Assembly: GCF_002261185.1 (NCBI RefSeq)
Contig: NZ_NEVQ01000003.1
Coordinates: 372,001 to 436,000 of the forward strand
DNA: 64,000 bases
Direction of reading: 5' to 3'
Source of the DNA: Bordetella genomosp. 4
GTDB taxonomy: Bacteria; Pseudomonadota; Gammaproteobacteria; Burkholderiales; Burkholderiaceae_B
In this document: positions 48,346 through 57,757 of the stretch, piece by piece
Layout of the letters: the number at the start of each line of letters is the position of its first letter
Position numbering within the stretch: the stretch's first letter is position 1
Notes under the pieces: generated by a model
The model's database searches: none
What the model was told of the DNA's origin: nothing
What the model saw: the letters and a program-made list of their open reading frames with translations, nothing else
Position numbers and translations under genes: made by a program

Positions 48346-48523
48346 TTTGCTGGCGAGAGAGAGGCGTTCTTTTGGCGCCGCCGTCCGCCGTGTAAAGGCC
48401 TCATCGGCCCTATCGCACGGACTCGCCCCGTTAGCAGGGGGCTCGGTCCGCTGCGCGGACTGGGATCCGTGCTCTACGGGCCGGTGAGGCCTTTACACGG
48501 CGGACGACGGCTCGCGGTGGGGG
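48346..48523 (+). repeat. Structured intergenic repeat, copy 1
   Basis: Outer stem: 48377-48410 pairs with 48478-48511, 34 bp with one C/A mismatch and one wobble. Core 5' to 3': TATC; helix GCACGGA/TCCGTGC (48415-48421, 48466-48472); CTC; helix GCCCC/GGGGC with loop GTTAGCAG (48425-48442); TCG; helix GTCCGC/GCGGAC with loop TGC (48446-48460); TCTAC. TTGCTGGC precedes the stem at 48347-48354, and TCGCGGTGGGG follows directly. A weak hairpin CTCGCG/CGCGAG with TTTT (48511-48544) comes after. The rest of the gap 48240-48761, before EF-G, shows no gene. It lies 218 bp before the EF-G start and is probably transcribed. Confidence 0.85.
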
Positions 48524-48761
48524 AATGCCATCGTCGCGAGTTTTGCCGGGCTGCTTTGATTTGTCCTGCGGATTTTTGATTTTCAACGGTCTTGTTGGGT
48601 GCGCTCCTCGCTGTGGTTTGGCGCGTCTTGACGCGCCCTTTTGCAAACCTATTGCGAGGATAGGGCTATAGGGGGTGGGCGTTATTTTGTGGGCGTAATA
48701 TGCTTTGAGCGCAGGTCTATGACTGCGCTGCATCACTGGATTGAATTCACCAGGAAAGGCT

Positions 48762-50873
48762 ATGACTCGCAAAACGCGCATCGATCAATATCGCAATATC
48801 GGTATCAGTGCCCATATCGACGCGGGCAAGACGACGACGACTGAGCGCATTCTTTTCTATACCGGGATCACCCATAAATTGGGCGAGGTGCATAACGGCG
48901 CCGCGGTGATGGACTGGATGGAGCAGGAGCAAGAGCGCGGTATTACGATCACGTCGGCGGCGACGACGGCGTTCTGGCGTGGGATGGCGGGGAATTATCC
49001 TGAACACCGCATCAATATCATTGACACCCCGGGACACGTCGATTTCACGATCGAGGTCGAGCGCTCGATGCGCGTGCTGGATGGCGCTTGTATGGTGTAC
49101 GACGCGGTGGGCGGTGTGCAGCCGCAATCCGAGACGGTGTGGCGGCAGGCGAATAAATACGCTGTGCCGCGCATTGCGTTCGTGAACAAGATGGATCGTA
49201 TCGGCGCGGATTTCTTTCGGGTGCAAAAGCAGATCGTCGATCGCCTGAGAGGCGATGCAGTGCCGATTCAGATTCCGGTAGGGGCCGAGGACCATTTCCA
49301 AGGTGTGGTCGATCTGGTCAAGATGAAATCCATCATCTGGGATGACGAGAGTCAGGGTGTGCGGTTCGAGTACCGCGATATTCCGGACGAGCTGCAGGAT
49401 GTGGCGCGCCGATGGCATGACCATATGGTTGAAAAGGCCGCAGAGGCCGACGAGGAACTGCTGGAGAAATATCTGGCAGGCGAGGCCCTGTCCGAGGACG
49501 ATATCAAGCGTGGTTTGCGCAAGCGCACGATCGCCAATGAAATCGTGCCGATGCTGTGCGGCAGCGCGTTTAAGAACAAAGGCGTGCAGGCCATGCTGGA
49601 TGCGGTGATCGATTATCTGCCGTCGCCGGTGGATGTGCCCGCCATCAAGGGGCACGATGAGAAAGACCGCGACATCGAACGCCATCCGGATGACAAGGAG
49701 CCGTTTTCGGCTTTGGCATTCAAGATCATGACGGATCCCTTCGTGGGACAGCTGGTGTTCTTCCGCGTGTATTCCGGGGTGGTTAAGTCCGGCGACTCGG
49801 TGTTGAATCCGCTCAAGGGCAAAAAGGAACGTCTGGGGCGTCTATTGCAGATGCATGCCAACGAACGGCGCGAGATCAGCGAGGTGTATGCAGGCGATAT
49901 CGCCGCCGCGGTGGGAATCAAAGAGGTCACCACGGGCGACACGCTGACTGACCCAGCGCATGTGATCATTCTGGAACGCATGACGTTCCCCGAGCCGGTG
50001 ATTTCTCAGGCGGTGGAGCCTAAGACGAAAGCCGACCAGGAAAAGATGAGCTTGGCGCTCAACCGGTTGGCGCAGGAGGATCCTTCGTTCCGGGTGCGCA
50101 CGGACGAAGAGTCCGGCCAGACGATTATTTCCGGTATGGGTGAGTTGCACCTGGAGATCTTGGTCGACCGCATGAAGCGTGAGTTCGGCGTCGAGGCCAC
50201 GGTGGGCAAGCCGCAGGTGGCGTATCGCGAAACCATACGCAAGACCTGCGACGAGGTCGAGGGCAAGTTCGTGAAGCAATCGGGCGGGCGCGGCCAGTAT
50301 GGTCACGTGGTGCTGAAACTCGAGCCCCAAGAGCCCGGCAAAGGCTATGAGTTCGTCGACGCGATCAAGGGCGGTGTGGTGCCGCGCGAATATATCCCGG
50401 CGGTGGACCGCGGTGTGCGCGAGAGTTTGAATGCCGGGGTGCTGGCGGGCTATCCGGTGGTGGATATCAAGGTCACGTTGGTGTTCGGTTCGTACCACGA
50501 TGTCGACTCCAACGAAAACGCATTCCGGATGGCGGCTTCGATGGCGTTCAAGGAAGGCATGCGGCGCGCCAAGCCGGTGCTGCTGGAACCCATGATGCAG
50601 GTCGAGGTGGAGACGCCAGAGGAGTTCACCGGGCACGTGATGGGCGATCTGTCGTCGCGTCGGGGGATGGTGCAGGGGATGGAGGACATCGCGGGCGGCG
50701 GAGGCAAGCTCGTGCGCGCCGAGGTGCCGCTATCGGAGATGTTTGGCTATTCCACGTCGCTGCGTTCACTGACGCAGGGGCGGGCGACTTATACGATGGA
50801 GTTCAAGCACTATGCCGAGACGCCTAATCAGGTGGCGGAGCAGGTTATTGCTGCGCATGGTGGGGGGCGTTAA
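48762..50873 (+). CDS. fusA: Elongation factor G paralogue
   Basis: A 703-aa EF-G, the GTPase that drives ribosomal translocation and, with RRF, ribosome recycling. G1 is [16 protein letters not shown]3 [20 protein letters not shown] and G4 [13 protein letters not shown]. Domains II-V are complete, including [22 protein letters not shown] 48762 follows AGGAAAGG. No rpsL, rpsG or tuf lies beside it, so it is not the str-operon copy and is probably a second EF-G, as other Bordetella relatives have. Overall sequence remains close to standard EF-G, unlike divergent EF-G2. Structured repeat copies lie on both sides. Symbol given for the family; fusA2 would be the usual name if a str copy exists. 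Confidence 0.93.
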
Positions 50874-50982
50874 GGGGGGCGGCTTTGTGGTGTGTGGAGG
50901 GAGTTTGCTGACGTAGGGCGCGATGCTGCTGTTGAGCGGGCTGGGCTTTTGCGTACGTGGGGAGCGGTGTTTGGGGGAGGCG

Positions 50983-51157
50983 TTTGCTGGCGTCGAGTGT
51001 CGCTGTCGAGACGTCCCGGCTGGGTGCCAGGAAGGCGCACCGCCCCTATCACAGCGGCTCGGCCCATGAGCAGGGGCCTCGGTCGCCTTCGGCGACTTCC
51101 CGCTGTTCAACGGGGCGGCGCGCCTTCCTGGCACCCAGCCGGGACTCGCAGTCGTGA
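50983..51157 (+). repeat. Structured intergenic repeat, copy 2
   Basis: Outer stem: 51013-51046 pairs with 51112-51145, 34 bp with one A/C mismatch. Core: TATC; helix ACAGCGG/CCGCTGT (51051-51057, 51100-51106); CTC; helix GGCCC/GGGCC with loop ATGAGCAG (51061-51078); TCG; helix GTCGCC/GGCGAC with loop TTC (51082-51096); TTC; TCAAC. TTGCTGGC at 50984-50991 precedes the stem by 21 bases, and TCGCAGTCGTG follows it directly. It lies 110 bp after the EF-G stop, in the same orientation as copy 1. There is no T-run, so it is not a standard terminator. Confidence 0.87.
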
Positions 51158-51168
51158 CTGGCCACGAG

Positions 51169-51234
51169 TAGTACGCGGACGGTTGTAAGGCCAGTCTCGG
51201 GCAGTGGACGGGCGGTTGTTAAGGCTGGCCCCGG
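51169..51234. repeat. Degenerate tandem pair after repeat copy 2
   Basis: Two imperfect units of about 32-34 bp lie head to tail: one with GGACGGTTGTAAGGCCAG and one with GGGCGGTTGTTAAGGCTGG, each ending in a CTCGG/CCCGG-like string. They fill part of the 450-bp non-coding gap 50874-51322 between EF-G and the hydrolase. The remaining bases of that gap show nothing I can assign. Confidence 0.45.
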
Positions 51235-51322
51235 ACGTACTCCGAGGGTTGCATTTTTCGGGGCTGCGCGGAGCGAAAGGCTGCTGCGGCAATCGATCTG
51301 GATCCGCCTCGGGTGGCCGGTG

Positions 51323-52126
51323 TCAGATCAAGAAGTTCTCGATCGCACTGTTGAAGGCGCGTGGGTTGCCCAGGTTCATGCCGTGGGACGAGCCCACGAT
51401 GACCTCTTTGTGGGCCGAGGGCAGCCATTCTGACAGCGTTTGCAGCACGGCGGGGTAGGGGGCCGGGCTGAGTGCGCCGCCGATCAATAGCAGCGGCATG
51501 GCCAGCTTTTGGATTTGTTCGCGGCTCAGCGAGTTGAGCATTTCTGTGGCCTGCCCACGCAGTGTGGTGGCATTGTCTCGGACCATTTCTTGAAACCAAG
51601 GCACCATGCGGCGCCACGTGTCGGGGCCAGACACGGTGTCGACAAAGAGCGCCAGGCCGGCATCCAGTTCGCCGTCGTCGATCAATTTCAGTGAGCGCTG
51701 ACGAAAGCCGCCACGATCGTCGGCGGACGGGTTGGGCGCCAATGGCCCGGGATCCGCGAGTGTCAGCGTGCGGACGCGTCTGGGTTCGCGCAGGGCGGCC
51801 TCGAGGGCGACGCGGGCGCCACGAGAGTGGCCGACGACATGCGCTGCGCCTTCGCCGACTGTCTCGATAAAGGCCAGCAGGTCGTCGACGTGTTGATCGA
51901 CGGAAAAGGGACCGCCGTCCCACTCTTGCGGCCAATAGTGGCGCAGGCTGGGGGCAAGCACGCGAAAGGACCGGCCCAGTGGGCCCATCTGAGATTTCCA
52001 ATACCTGCAGTCACACAATGACCCGTGCACCAAAACCAGCGGCGTGCCCTGACCGTGTTCGGTGTAGGTCATCGCATAGTCGTTGATATAAGTGGTTTGC
52101 AGGGGCAGTTGAGGTTCAGAACGCAT
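51323..52126 (-). CDS. Alpha/beta hydrolase
   Basis: A 267-aa hydrolase of the esterase/epoxide-hydrolase-like group. The oxyanion block is LVLVHGSLCDCRYW, the nucleophile elbow GHSRGARVAL, the acid region LLLIGGALSPAPYP, and the catalytic His in VGSSHGMNLGNPRAF. No signal peptide, so cytoplasmic. The start at 52126 is chosen as the first Met giving a normal N-terminus (MRSEPQLPLQTTYINDYAMT); the ribosome site is poor, and the frame runs far upstream. It is divergent from the YbaK gene. Substrate unknown. Confidence 0.83.
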   Translation of the reverse strand: MRSEPQLPLQTTYINDYAMTYTEHGQGTPLVLVHGSLCDCRYWKSQMGPLGRSFRVLAPSLRHYWPQEWDGGPFSVDQHVDDLLAFIETVGEGAAHVVGHSRGARVALEAALREPRRVRTLTLADPGPLAPNPSADDRGGFRQRSLKLIDDGELDAGLALFVDTVSGPDTWRRMVPWFQEMVRDNATTLRGQATEMLNSLSREQIQKLAMPLLLIGGALSPAPYPAVLQTLSEWLPSAHKEVIVGSSHGMNLGNPRAFNSAIENFLI

Positions 52127-52266
52127 GGTGGGCACGGAGGGAATCAAGCTCGTGATTCTAGCGCTCCGGGCGGTTTCAGGTCTTTGCGCCCCAGTCGCTG
52201 ATACACTCATTGCCCTCGCGCCGTATTGCCGGCCGCGATGTATTCGACCACACGGAATCGCCAAGC

Positions 52267-52788
52267 ATGTCAGCTGAATCTGCCTCTGCTTTACCCGAAT
52301 CTGCACAGCGTGTGGCCCAATTGCTGCAATCATTGGGCCATGAGCATCCTATCGTCATCCTGCCGCAAACCGGCCGCACCTCGGCCGAGGCCGCTCAGGG
52401 CCTCGGTTGCGAGGTTGCTCAAATTGCCAAGTCCATCATCTTTCGGCGTCGATCCGACGATGCACCGGTATTGGTCATCGCCAGCGGCGCCAATCGCGTC
52501 GATGAAACCAAAGTTGCCGAGATCGTGGGCGAACTGGGCAAGGCCGATGCGCGTTTCGTCCGAGAGATGACCGGCTACGCCATCGGCGGTGTGTGCCCGA
52601 TCGGTCATGCGGTCAAACCCGTCATGCTGCTCGATGAGGATCTCTTTCAATACGACACCTTGTGGGCCGCGGCAGGCCATCCGCACGCCGTATTCCGTCT
52701 GAGTCCTCAACAACTGGCCGCTATGACAGGCGCGCCCGTGGCCGACGTGGCATTACGCGTTTCCGCAGCTGATAGAGCACCAGAATGA
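52267..52788 (+). CDS. YbaK/EbsC-family aminoacyl-tRNA deacylase
   Basis: A 173-aa free-standing editing domain of the YbaK/ProX type, which hydrolyses mischarged tRNA (such as Cys-tRNA-Pro or Ala-tRNA-Pro). The Lys in VAQIAKSIIFRR, the block ANRVDETKVAEIVGE and the GxxP-like GYAIGGVCPIGH are family signatures. It starts at ATG 52267 and overlaps the EamA start by ATGA. The window's ProRS has its own YbaK-like insertion, so the two may cover different mischarged species. Confidence 0.88.
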   Translation: MSAESASALPESAQRVAQLLQSLGHEHPIVILPQTGRTSAEAAQGLGCEVAQIAKSIIFRRRSDDAPVLVIASGANRVDETKVAEIVGELGKADARFVREMTGYAIGGVCPIGHAVKPVMLLDEDLFQYDTLWAAAGHPHAVFRLSPQQLAAMTGAPVADVALRVSAADRAPE

Positions 52789-53693
52789 CCGATTGGGCCT
52801 GGATCTGGATTCCCGCCACCCTGGCGGCTGCCGCCGCTCAAGCCGGCCGCAATGCGGTGCAGCGCAGTCTAACGGCTACGCTGGGTACCTTGGGGGCAAC
52901 ACAAGTTCGTTTTCTCTTCGGATTTCCGTTTGCGCTCCTGTTCCTGGCCATCGTATTTGCCATCGATGGCGGCCCGCTACCCGGCATCCATTCAGAATTC
53001 CTACTCTTTGTCGTCGGCGGCGCCGTCGCGCAGATCGCAGCTACCGGTCTCATGCTCGCTGCCATGCGAGAGCGTTCCTTTGTCGTCGTCACCGCCTGGA
53101 CCAAAACCGAGCCGATCCAAGTCGCCTTGTTTGGTTTCGTAGTCCTGGGTGATCCGCTATCGATCACAGGGGTGTTGGCCGTCATTCTCGCCACATTAGG
53201 CGTCGTCCTGATGTCAGGCAATCCTGCCTCCGCCACCGGTCGTGGCAGCCTGCGCCCGGCATTGTTGGGCCTGGTGTCCGGCGCCTGCTTTGCGCTTTCC
53301 GCCATCGGCTTTCGGGGCGCGATTCTGACGCTCGACAGCGGCAGCTTTGTCCTGCAAGCCACCTGGACGCTCGCGTGGTCCCTGGGCATACAGACCTTGA
53401 TCCTGGCCGTCTGGATGATTCTTTTCAATCGCACCCTGCTCATCGCCTGCATGGCGGCCTGGCGCACCTCCATCTGGGGCGGCCTGCTGGGTGCCACGGC
53501 CTCTCAGGGCTGGTTCATCGGCTTCGCCCTTACCGCTGCCGCGAATGTCCGTACCCTGGGTCTTGTAGAGGTTCTATTCGCCCAAATCCTCTCCCGCCGC
53601 GTCTTCTCACACGCCACCAGCCGTCGAGAACTGTTAGGCATCGCGCTAATCATCATCGGCGTTGCAGCGTTGCTAATCGCCTCTGCACACTAA
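52785..53693 (+). CDS. EamA-family membrane transporter
   Basis: A 302-aa DMT-superfamily carrier with about ten membrane helices. Recognisable are FGFPFALLFLAIVFAIDGGP, WTKTEPIQVALFGFVVLGDP (EamA repeat 1 end) and VEVLFAQILSRRVFSHATSR (repeat 2 end). ATG 52785 overlaps the YbaK stop, so the two are translated together. The direction and cargo of transport are unknown. Repeat copy 3 begins 38 bp after the stop, inverted relative to this gene. Confidence 0.85.
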   Translation: MTDWAWIWIPATLAAAAAQAGRNAVQRSLTATLGTLGATQVRFLFGFPFALLFLAIVFAIDGGPLPGIHSEFLLFVVGGAVAQIAATGLMLAAMRERSFVVVTAWTKTEPIQVALFGFVVLGDPLSITGVLAVILATLGVVLMSGNPASATGRGSLRPALLGLVSGACFALSAIGFRGAILTLDSGSFVLQATWTLAWSLGIQTLILAVWMILFNRTLLIACMAAWRTSIWGGLLGATASQGWFIGFALTAAANVRTLGLVEVLFAQILSRRVFSHATSRRELLGIALIIIGVAALLIASAH

Positions 53694-53731
53694 CCGGGGT
53701 CGTGATACCTCAGGCCTGAAGCCTCAGCAAT

Positions 53732-53907
53732 TCACTACTGTGAGCCCCTGTCGGGTGCCGGGAAGCCACGCCGGCCCGTTGAGCGCGGATTTAGCCCGCG
53801 AAGCGGGCCGAGGCCCCTGGTCATGGGCCGAGTCCGTGCGATAGGGCCGGCGTGGCTTCCCGGCACCCGGCAGGGGCGGCTTAAGAGATATCCTCTAGGC
53901 CAGCAAG
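53732..53907 (-). repeat. Structured intergenic repeat, copy 3 (inverted)
   Basis: Outer stem: 53744-53777 pairs with 53844-53877, 34 bp with only one wobble pair. Read on the minus strand the core is TATC; helix GCACGGA/TCCGCGC (one mismatch); CTC; helix GGCCC/GGGCC with loop ATGACCAG; TCG; helix GCCCGC/GCGGGC with loop TTC; TAAA; TCAAC. TTGCTGGC on the minus strand (53899-53906) precedes the stem by 21 bases, and TCACAGTAGTG follows it directly. It fills the gap between the EamA gene and the convergent cpoB gene. Its outer stem shares GGGTGCC(A/G)GGAAG with copy 2; copy 1 does not. Confidence 0.87.
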
Positions 53908-56578: not shown

Positions 56579-57757
56579 TCAGTCATACATTCTGTACACA
56601 ACGTCGATAACGGACGGATAGGCGCCCGTCGAGGGTTTGGGGAACGGATTGCAGCGGCGGATCCCCGTTTCGACCGCACGGTCAAATACGGAGTTGCCCG
56701 ACGAGCCGGTCAGATTCAAGCCGGTTACCTTGCCGTCTGAACTCAACTGTACCCGGTATTGGGCTGTCGGGTTAGCCGTACCGCTACGGGGAGGCGTATC
56801 AAAAACCACGCCGGGGCGTACGCAGGTGCGCACCTTGGCGGCATAGCCACTGTCGTTGCCACCACCGCCTCGCTGGTTGCGGTCGGCCGTGCCGCCCGGG
56901 ATGCCGGCAGCACCCAGCGCATCGCCTCGCATGGCGTCGCGCAAAGCCTTGTCGGCGGCTGCTTTTTTCGCTGCGGCTGCCTTTTCCGCTGCTGCCTTCT
57001 TTTCGGCTGCAGCTTTTTCAGCTGCGGCTTTCTTCTCGGCAGCGGCTTTTTCGGCTGCGGCCTTCTCTGCGGCGGCTTTCTTTTCGGCAGCAGCCTTTTC
57101 CGCGGCCGCTTTTTGTGCGGCAGCTTTCTCGGCAGCGGCTTTCTCTGCAGCGGCTTTTTCTGCCGCAGCCTTTTGAGCAGCGGCCTTTTCAGCGGCTGCC
57201 TTCTTCGCGGCGGCTGCCTTTTCGGCTTCTGCTTCCTTGCGCTCTTGCTCCAGGCGTTGCTGTTCCTTCAGCTCGGCTTGTTTGCGTATTTCGTCTTGGC
57301 GGGCCTTTTCTGCCGCGGCTTCAGCGGCCAATCGGGCTTTTTCCTCTTGTTCGCGTTTCTTGCGCGCGGCCTCGAGCGCGATTTCGGGGTCGGGCTGAGG
57401 ATCGGGTTGTGCGACCGGTGGCGGCGTCTTGGGTTGAGGCGCGGGCTGCGGTTCCGGTTCGGGCTGAGGCGCGGGTTCAGGCTCCGGCTCAGGTTCGGGC
57501 TCGGGCGGCTGAGGCTCGGGGGTGACTTTAGGCTCGTCGGGCTGTTCTTCGGGAGGGCGCGAATTAGGCGTATCGCCGTTGGCCCATAGTTCTACCTGGA
57601 CCGGCCCGGGATTTTCAGTATGCCAACTAACGCCAAAAATCAGGGCGATCAGCAGCAGCACGTGCGCCAGGATGGCCAGGCCCAGCGCTTTGCGATTGTC
57701 CTGCGCGGCGGGGGAGTGCGGCGCGGTGCTGTCGTGTCGAAAGAGAGGCGGGGTCAT
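56579..57757 (-). CDS. tolA: Tol-Pal system inner-membrane protein TolA
   Basis: A 392-aa protein with one N-terminal membrane helix (LGLAILAHVLLLIALIFGVS), a Pro/Glu-rich segment of about 60 residues (PEPQPPEPEPEPEPEPAP), a long Ala/Lys/Glu-rich helix built from KAAAEKAAAEK-type repeats (DNA about 56950-57240), and a C-terminal globular domain (VRTCVRPGVVFDTPP, ETGIRRCNPFPKP) that contacts TolB and Pal. Energised by TolQR proton flow. The repeats are the normal rigid stalk; their number often varies among strains. Confidence 0.95.
   Translation of the reverse strand: MTPPLFRHDSTAPHSPAAQDNRKALGLAILAHVLLLIALIFGVSWHTENPGPVQVELWANGDTPNSRPPEEQPDEPKVTPEPQPPEPEPEPEPEPAPQPEPEPQPAPQPKTPPPVAQPDPQPDPEIALEAARKKREQEEKARLAAEAAAEKARQDEIRKQAELKEQQRLEQERKEAEAEKAAAAKKAAAEKAAAQKAAAEKAAAEKAAAEKAAAQKAAAEKAAAEKKAAAEKAAAEKAAAEKKAAAEKAAAEKKAAAEKAAAAKKAAADKALRDAMRGDALGAAGIPGGTADRNQRGGGGNDSGYAAKVRTCVRPGVVFDTPPRSGTANPTAQYRVQLSSDGKVTGLNLTGSSGNSVFDRAVETGIRRCNPFPKPSTGAYPSVIDVVYRMYD

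What the first reader, a model, noticed from the sequence alone, without database searches (positions are those of the whole stretch)
48346..53907. Family of three structured intergenic repeats with compensatory changes
Copies at 48377-48511, 51013-51145 and 53744-53877 (minus strand) fold into the same shape: a 34-bp outer stem, then helices of 7, 5 and 6 bp. Unpaired strings TATC, CTC, CAG, TCG and TCAAC/TCTAC stay almost fixed. The paired bases change between copies but pairing is kept: GCACGGA/TCCGTGC versus ACAGCGG/CCGCTGT; GTCCGC/GCGGAC versus GTCGCC/GGCGAC versus GCCCGC/GCGGGC. The outer stem of copy 1 shares almost no sequence with the other two, yet pairs over the same length. This is the pattern of a conserved structured RNA or a structure-recognised DNA element. 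I cannot match it to a named family.
Basis: seen in the sequence. Interest (0 to 1): 0.92.

Follow-up and report, generated by a model that had tools for sequence, protein, structure and literature searches.

The report
Paired T-shaped hairpin repeats, Bordetella relatives
Three intergenic hairpins in this bacterial DNA are members of a dispersed repeat family whose folded shape, on one particular strand, is kept while its letters change; it resembles the known REP-type repeats but is larger, built differently, and abundant in genomes where their usual transposase was not found.

Summary
The three hairpins (48377-48511, 51013-51145, 53744-53877) belong to a family of at least 68 hairpins at 50 loci in this genome, found in 9 of 9 genomes of the genus and in two more genera. 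Pairing is kept while sequence changes. (2) 36 of the 68 form 18 inverted doublets, one A-type and one B-type unit around a 60-222-bp spacer. (3) They avoid promoters (1 of 49 loci divergent, 29 convergent); the site of copy 3 is empty in 8 of 8 relatives. This is BIME/REPIN-like, but no Y1 transposase was found in eight element-bearing genomes, the two richest included. Best reading: a non-autonomous repeat maintained through a folded single strand by an unidentified factor; RNA versus DNA action undecided. No Rfam match; the published Bor-2 repeat might be the same family (sequence not readable here).

The parts
48346..48376 (+). 5' flank of unit 1 (TTTTGCTGG at -31; GTTCTTTTGGC at -11..-1)
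48512..48540 (+). 3' flank of unit 1 (TCGCGGTGGGGGAATGCC...)
50983..51012 (+). 5' flank of unit 2 (TTTGCTGGC at -30; CGCTGTCGAGAC before the stem)
51146..51172 (+). 3' flank of unit 2 (TCGCAGTCGTGACTGGCCACG...)
53878..53907 (-). 5' flank of unit 3 (TTGCTGGCC at -29; TATCTCTTAAGCC before the stem)
53717..53743 (-). 3' flank of unit 3 (TCACAGTAGTGAATTGC...)

Best explanation
The three hairpins are singlet copies of a non-coding interspersed repeat. Each unit is about 190-200 bp: a short conserved 5' flank, a T-shaped hairpin (34-bp stem of freely changing sequence, conserved unpaired strings, two small arms) and a 3' flank conserved over some 25 bp. Two homologous unit types, A and B, often stand as an inverted doublet with 3' flanks inward. 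Shown: the family, the doublets, the strand asymmetry, the intergenic placement, one orthologous site without the element in eight relatives. Inferred: copies spread, or spread in the past, as a non-autonomous element whose recognised form is the folded complement strand, bound by an unidentified factor (transposase- or endonuclease-like) that reads stem length, junction strings and the GNA-capped arm rather than stem sequence; copies survive mostly behind genes because insertions elsewhere are selected against. In a doublet each DNA strand then carries one functional hairpin, the one nearer its 3' end.
For: At least 68 distinct hairpins in this genome (69 catalogued, one a contig-overlap duplicate). 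Arms 33-34 bp in 73 of 90 hairpins whatever the core (46, 62-74 or 140-151 nt). 18 doublets in this genome: 17 scored A+B; the 18th (L122) scored B+B and reads as A+B once its misregistered arms are allowed for. All 23 doublets catalogued in the genus are inverted with 3' flanks inward (21 by script, L122 and L154 by eye); 7 of 7 oriented pairs in two other genera are inverted too. Near-identical B copies share about 35-55 bp upstream and 5-35 bp downstream and then diverge. 50 loci: 29 convergent, 19 codirectional, 1 divergent, 1 undefined, none enclosed in a predicted gene. No hairpin at the orthologous site of copy 3 in 8 of 8 relatives. Strand asymmetry: 57 against 10 in arms, with 15 other mismatches (p 4e-9); 86 of 90; GNA loop 69 of 72; in other genera 17 against 2 and 18 of 19.
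Against: No mobiliser found: Y1 transposase (PF01797, E up to 0.01) not found in G000, G003, G007 nor in G098, G200, G226, G014, G220; no gene-carrying version seen among the loci fetched. No target duplication could be defined; orthologous intergenic regions are too diverged. Gain and loss cannot be told apart at the one empty site, and the copy-2 site (fusA next to the hydrolase) does not exist as such in the relatives. Three near-identical doublets give mixed signals: L016 and L017 have identical spacers (0 of 163) but hairpins differing at 6 and 3 of 134, while L021 differs from L016 at 10 of 163 in the spacer and 4 and 3 of 134 in the hairpins; gene conversion is possible. Other spacers are unrelated, so the doublet is not one fixed mobile unit. 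In relatives the preference for convergent sites is weaker (6 of 20 loci).
Confidence: 0.47

Rival explanations
1. RNA-level 3'-end element: the structure works in read-through transcripts as a processing, stabilising or insulating signal between neighbouring genes (as proposed for REP, ERIC, NEMIS). In a convergent doublet each incoming transcript meets the functional fold of the distal unit last, before running antisense into the neighbour.
For: Strong strand-specific fold with G-U tolerated on one strand; placement behind genes, 29 of 49 defined loci convergent; among codirectional singlets of this genome 9 have the functional strand in the sense of the neighbouring genes and 4 do not, a weak lean; 34 bp of near-perfect duplex would be an RNase III-type substrate (general knowledge).
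Against: No T-tract in the flank consensus after the stem on either strand and no terminator-like hit at the three hairpins. The copy-3 site lacks the element in 8 of 8 relatives. No RNA data available.
Confidence: 0.3
2. Arms are kept complementary by DNA-level correction (template switching between the arms, quasi-palindrome correction), so the covariation reflects replication mechanics and not selection on the fold.
For: Among 22 pairs of copies differing at 3-5 arm pairs, 3.55 on average are changed on both sides and 0.86 on one; the mean of single-sided changes stays at about 0.9-1.4 for nearly all greater distances. L016 and L017 differ in their hairpins but not in the spacer.
Against: Correction alone predicts no strand preference, yet mismatches are 57 to 10 and 17 to 2 in other genera; a strand-biased mutation process could mimic part of this. 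It does not explain the GNA loop, conserved junction strings or constant arm length.
Confidence: 0.13
3. RAYT-mobilised REP/REPIN in the strict sense.
For: Inverted doublets, extragenic placement, compensatory changes, as described for REPINs in passages of PMC3116915.
Against: No Y1 transposase found in eight element-bearing genomes. Where hairpins were found near the relatives' Y1 genes (5 of 6 loci) they are of a different, shorter type built on GGTGTC-GACACC repeats. Unit several times larger than the 20-40 bp REP of PMC3733652 (abstract start in the listing).
Confidence: 0.06

Closest known systems
REPIN / BIME (REP doublets; PMC3116915, passages read)
   Same: Interspersed, extragenic, inverted doublets with a less conserved spacer, hairpin kept by compensatory changes, singlets also present; two unit types in inverted order as Y and Z in E. 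coli BIMEs (recalled)
   Different: Hairpin about 134 nt with 34-bp stem and T-shaped core instead of a 20-40 bp palindrome; no RAYT found in the richest genomes; conserved letters sit in the core and flanks
Bor repeats (26-30 bp; PMC1590033, passages) and Bor-1 / Bor-2 (table rows 117 and 167 with 196(92) and 17(6) for B. bronchiseptica, which I take as length and members; PMC2267715, passages)
   Same: Bordetella, intergenic, predicted common structure; Bor-2 length and number would fit
   Different: Sequences are only in a figure or supplement not readable here, so identity is untested; no doublets, strand or T shape in the passages seen
BRE, Beta-proteobacterial repeat element (PMC3110155, section 14 read)
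   Same: Repeated mainly in intergenic regions of Bordetella
   Different: 75-91 bp, at some loci in tandem with variable number, also reported in Comamonadaceae and Azoarcus
NEMIS, ERIC (recalled; named in passages)
   Same: Structured intergenic repeats able to fold in RNA
   Different: As I recall them, single stem-loops without a T-shaped core or A/B doublets
Parvovirus terminal repeats (recalled)
   Same: T-shaped hairpin with two small arms at both inverted ends of an element
   Different: No replication gene, no virus-like context; analogy of shape only

Membership tests
REP/REPIN | inverted doublets of extragenic palindromes | tested here: met
   23 of 23 doublets inverted (21 by script, 2 by eye); 36 of 68 hairpins of this genome are in doublets
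REP/REPIN | associated Y1 transposase (RAYT) in the genome | tested here: not met
   PF01797 not found in G000, G003, G007, G098, G200, G226, G014, G220; found in 6 of 9 genus genomes, near other hairpins in 5 of the 6 loci
REP/REPIN | 20-40 bp palindrome with GTAG or CGTC tag | tested here: not met
   134-nt hairpin; flanks GTTCTTTAGGC / TCRCARTG; the tag was judged by reading only
Intrinsic terminator | GC hairpin followed by T-tract | tested here: not met
   flank consensus of 68 and 23 hairpins shows no T-tract after the stem on either strand; no terminator-like hit at the three copies
Any Rfam family | covariance-model score above gathering cut-off | tested here: not met
   only a tRNA in the window; in 7 loci at E up to 5 only sub-threshold hits, those on the hairpins being miRNA-precursor models
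Bor-2 | sequence identity with the published 167-bp family | not testable with these tools
BRE | 75-91 bp unit, at some loci in tandem | tested here: not met
   hairpin 134 nt; units stand singly or as inverted pairs; sequence not compared
NEMIS/ERIC | processing of the RNA by RNase III or RNase E (recalled) | not testable with these tools
   no RNA data

The most novel reading that the evidence does not exclude
The doublets are minimal genomes of a bacterial single-stranded element that copies itself by hairpin priming: every strand of a doublet carries its functional T-shaped hairpin towards its own 3' end, and copying one arm from the other would keep 34-bp arms almost perfectly complementary while their sequence drifts, much as in parvovirus terminal repeats (recalled), driven by an undiscovered host or helper nuclease. 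One copy in G001 (L154 2008-2139) has its core inverted relative to its flanks, a flip-flop-like arrangement, though simple inversion between the arms would also give it.
Probability: 0.06. Interest if true: 0.92.

Novelty: new variant of a known kind. Interest (0 to 1): 0.6.

Why it matters
REP-type repeats are usually explained by a resident Y1 transposase. Here is a family with the same genomic habits, a more elaborate fold and strand-specific conservation, abundant in genomes where that enzyme was not found. That makes the mobilising or maintaining factor a well-posed target, and the strand asymmetry of stem mismatches offers a simple test, usable on other bacterial palindromes, for which strand is the folded one.

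Tried and rejected
RAYT as resident mobiliser: rejected for the eight genomes named. Autonomous element between distant hairpins: the 4.2-kb pair in contig 16 (L117) encloses an autotransporter-like gene, a YaeQ-like gene and a chorismate-lyase-like gene (names recalled from the ORF translations), so not a transposon. Relatives in other phyla: the only genome-contig hit (L060) shares the 20-base pattern and no hairpin on reading, and I take it as chance. Plasmids, phages, viral contigs: no match. Rfam: none. tRNA-like, riboswitch, integron attC: considered only, not tested; the flanks of the stem are not complementary to each other on reading. Literature searches; none of the listings or passages that I read describes this structure, which is not proof that it is unpublished. 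The first codon model gave hardly any genes because of a frame error and was repeated.

Counting notes; 90 of 94 catalogued hairpins (L132, L148, L150 and one L154 copy dropped because of doubtful orientation or register; the duplicate L022 was still in, so 89 distinct); 90 of 94 (L148, L150, L022, L132 dropped; one L154 copy turned by its core). Undropped counts are 59 against 10. After removing near-identical copies: 83 hairpins, 55 against 10. In the 7-bp inner helix the bias is weaker: 31 against 12, with 19 other mismatches, over 71 cores; 72 cores of 62-69 nt examined, 3 without a match; 16 loci given, duplicates skipped; 21 hairpins printed, 19 oriented (L192 and L198 not); L195 repeats the pair in L184, L196 gave none. 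In one search the second hairpin of the L136 pair was not separated and is not counted. Copy numbers are lower bounds, since the genome search scored at most 150 candidates per genome.
Full report
CHECK OF THE OBSERVATION. A scan of the window for long-armed hairpins returns exactly these three. Arms are 34 bp with 2, 1 and 1 mismatches.

FAMILY SIZE. A DNA search of the own genome with copy 1 gave 48 matches, which include opposite-strand echoes of palindromes. A covariance model from 27 copies and a hairpin scan of the fetched loci gave 69 hairpins in this genome; L022 and the first hairpin of L021 are the same copy read at two overlapping contig ends, leaving 68. With the same model 9 of 9 genomes of the genus, this one included, have matches at E 0.001, and I recognised the core on reading at least one locus of each. 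In 200 genomes drawn from the family 11 match at E 1e-8, from three genera; stricter filters there lose weak copies, as G005 shows. In the second genus 5 of 15 genomes match at E 1e-7. Copies in other species share the architecture and parts of the core with little stem similarity. The genus is probably Bordetella in the wide sense: one relative is a single contig of 5,287,950 bases, which I recall as the size of B. petrii DSM 12804; a look in the genome paper did not confirm the figure.

ANATOMY. Arms are 31-37 bp in 87 of 90 and 42 bp in 3; cores are 62-74 nt in 75, 140-151 nt in 14 and 46 nt in one. The long cores also fold with two arms, both extended. Two unit types, A and B, are told apart by flanks and outer stem; copy 1 is B, copies 2 and 3 are A (types by the script and by reading).

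DOUBLETS. Thirty-six of the 68 hairpins form 18 doublets; 32 are singlets (22 A, 10 B). Seventeen doublets score as A plus B; the eighteenth (L122) scores B plus B because its arms were cut out of register, and reads as A plus B. In relatives of the genus 2 of 5 doublets score A plus B and 3 score B plus B; the type motifs come from G000 and fit the relatives poorly. Orientation is the same in all 23: the script finds 21, and the two exceptions (L122, L154) are register errors on reading. Spacers are 60-225 bp and unrelated except near the units, apart from three near-identical doublets. Inverted order holds in convergent and codirectional surroundings alike. In the second and third genus 7 of 7 oriented pairs are inverted.

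WHICH STRAND. Folded as RNA the complement is more stable in 86 of 90, mean 7 kcal/mol; with DNA parameters 83 against 7. The 6-bp arm carries a C-GNA-G loop on the complement in 69 of 72 short cores (GCA 34, GAA 27, GTA 7, GGA 1). GNA loops on at least two G-C pairs give very stable DNA mini-hairpins according to passages of PMC4686876. Copies from other genera show 17 against 2 and 18 of 19. A strand-biased mutation process could produce part of the mismatch bias, but hardly the loop.

COVARIATION. On 27 copies 97.3% of cells pair, 36 of 53 pairs have changes on both sides, and the covariation score is 0.553, against 0.164 in shuffles and at most 0.082 in slid controls; the number of further pair types (60) does not exceed the shuffles (61.8). 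Among near copies differing at 3-5 arm pairs two-sided changes already outnumber one-sided ones, so mismatches are removed fast, by selection or by copying between the arms. Between L016 and L017 the spacer is identical while the hairpins differ at 6 and 3 positions; against L021 the spacer differs more (10 of 163) than the hairpins (3-4 of 134 each).

PLACEMENT AND AGE. Codon-based gene calls enclose none of the hairpins. Of 50 loci, a doublet counted once, 29 are convergent, 19 codirectional, 1 divergent and 1 undefined, against 12.7, 19.0 and 17.3 expected for the 49 from intergenic length in this window (the window's own intergenic bases include the three elements). In relatives, where only part of the copies was fetched, 6 of 20 loci are convergent, 12 codirectional and 2 divergent, a weaker trend. 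At the site of copy 3 none of 8 relatives has a hairpin. The junction that holds copy 2 does not exist in the relatives: the hydrolase is followed by other genes and no such hairpin lies within the 3.8-kb loci of 8 of 8. G007 has the universal-stress gene next to the hydrolase, so the fusA paralogue with copies 1 and 2 lies in a segment absent from G007 at that place.

MECHANISM. The habits are those of BIMEs and REPINs (PMC3116915 passages), so I read the family as a non-autonomous repeat spread or kept through a folded single strand, here the complement. The usual enzyme was not found in G000, G003, G007, G098, G200, G226, G014 or G220 (PF01797, E up to 0.01), and where hairpins were found near the relatives' Y1 genes they are of another type. 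The factor is unknown. RNA-level action in read-through transcripts remains the main rival; no expression data are at hand.

NOVELTY. Rfam has no match. Known Bordetella repeats are Bor (26-30 bp), Bor-1, Bor-2 and BRE. Bor-2, listed with length 167 for B. bronchiseptica, may be this family; its sequences could not be read. I therefore call it a new variant of a known kind and not categorically new.

Noticed in passing
window 48741-50873 with 48377-48511 and 51013-51145: A fusA (EF-G) gene with one hairpin on each side lies between a universal-stress gene and a hydrolase that are neighbours in G007; the segment is absent at that place there.
   Followed up: partly
L154 2008-2139 (G001): Core inverted relative to the conserved flanks, the one clear case among 75 scorable hairpins (three other discordant scores I read as register errors).
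   Followed up: partly
L021 1-154 and L022 1497-1610 (contigs C6 start, C8 end): Two contigs end within and overlap at the same hairpin, so the repeat breaks the assembly.
   Followed up: partly
L158, L159, L160: Y1 (RAYT-like) genes of relatives lie near hairpins built on GGTGTCTGAC/GTCAGACACC repeats, perhaps the published Bor REP-like repeats (sequence not compared); the L158 Y1 match holds an internal stop.
   Followed up: partly
L019 1803-2021, L130, L133 and others: Long-core variants carry an extra stem ending in a CATGTTTGAGCG..GCGAGTTTG hairpin that looks like a separate recurrent motif.
   Followed up: no
L033 1511-1624: A near-identical B copy whose 46-nt core lacks the P3 arm while keeping the 34-bp stem.
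   Followed up: no
window 56937-57252: 15-18 bp periodic repeat inside an ORF rich in alanine and lysine (TolA-like, name recalled).
   Followed up: no
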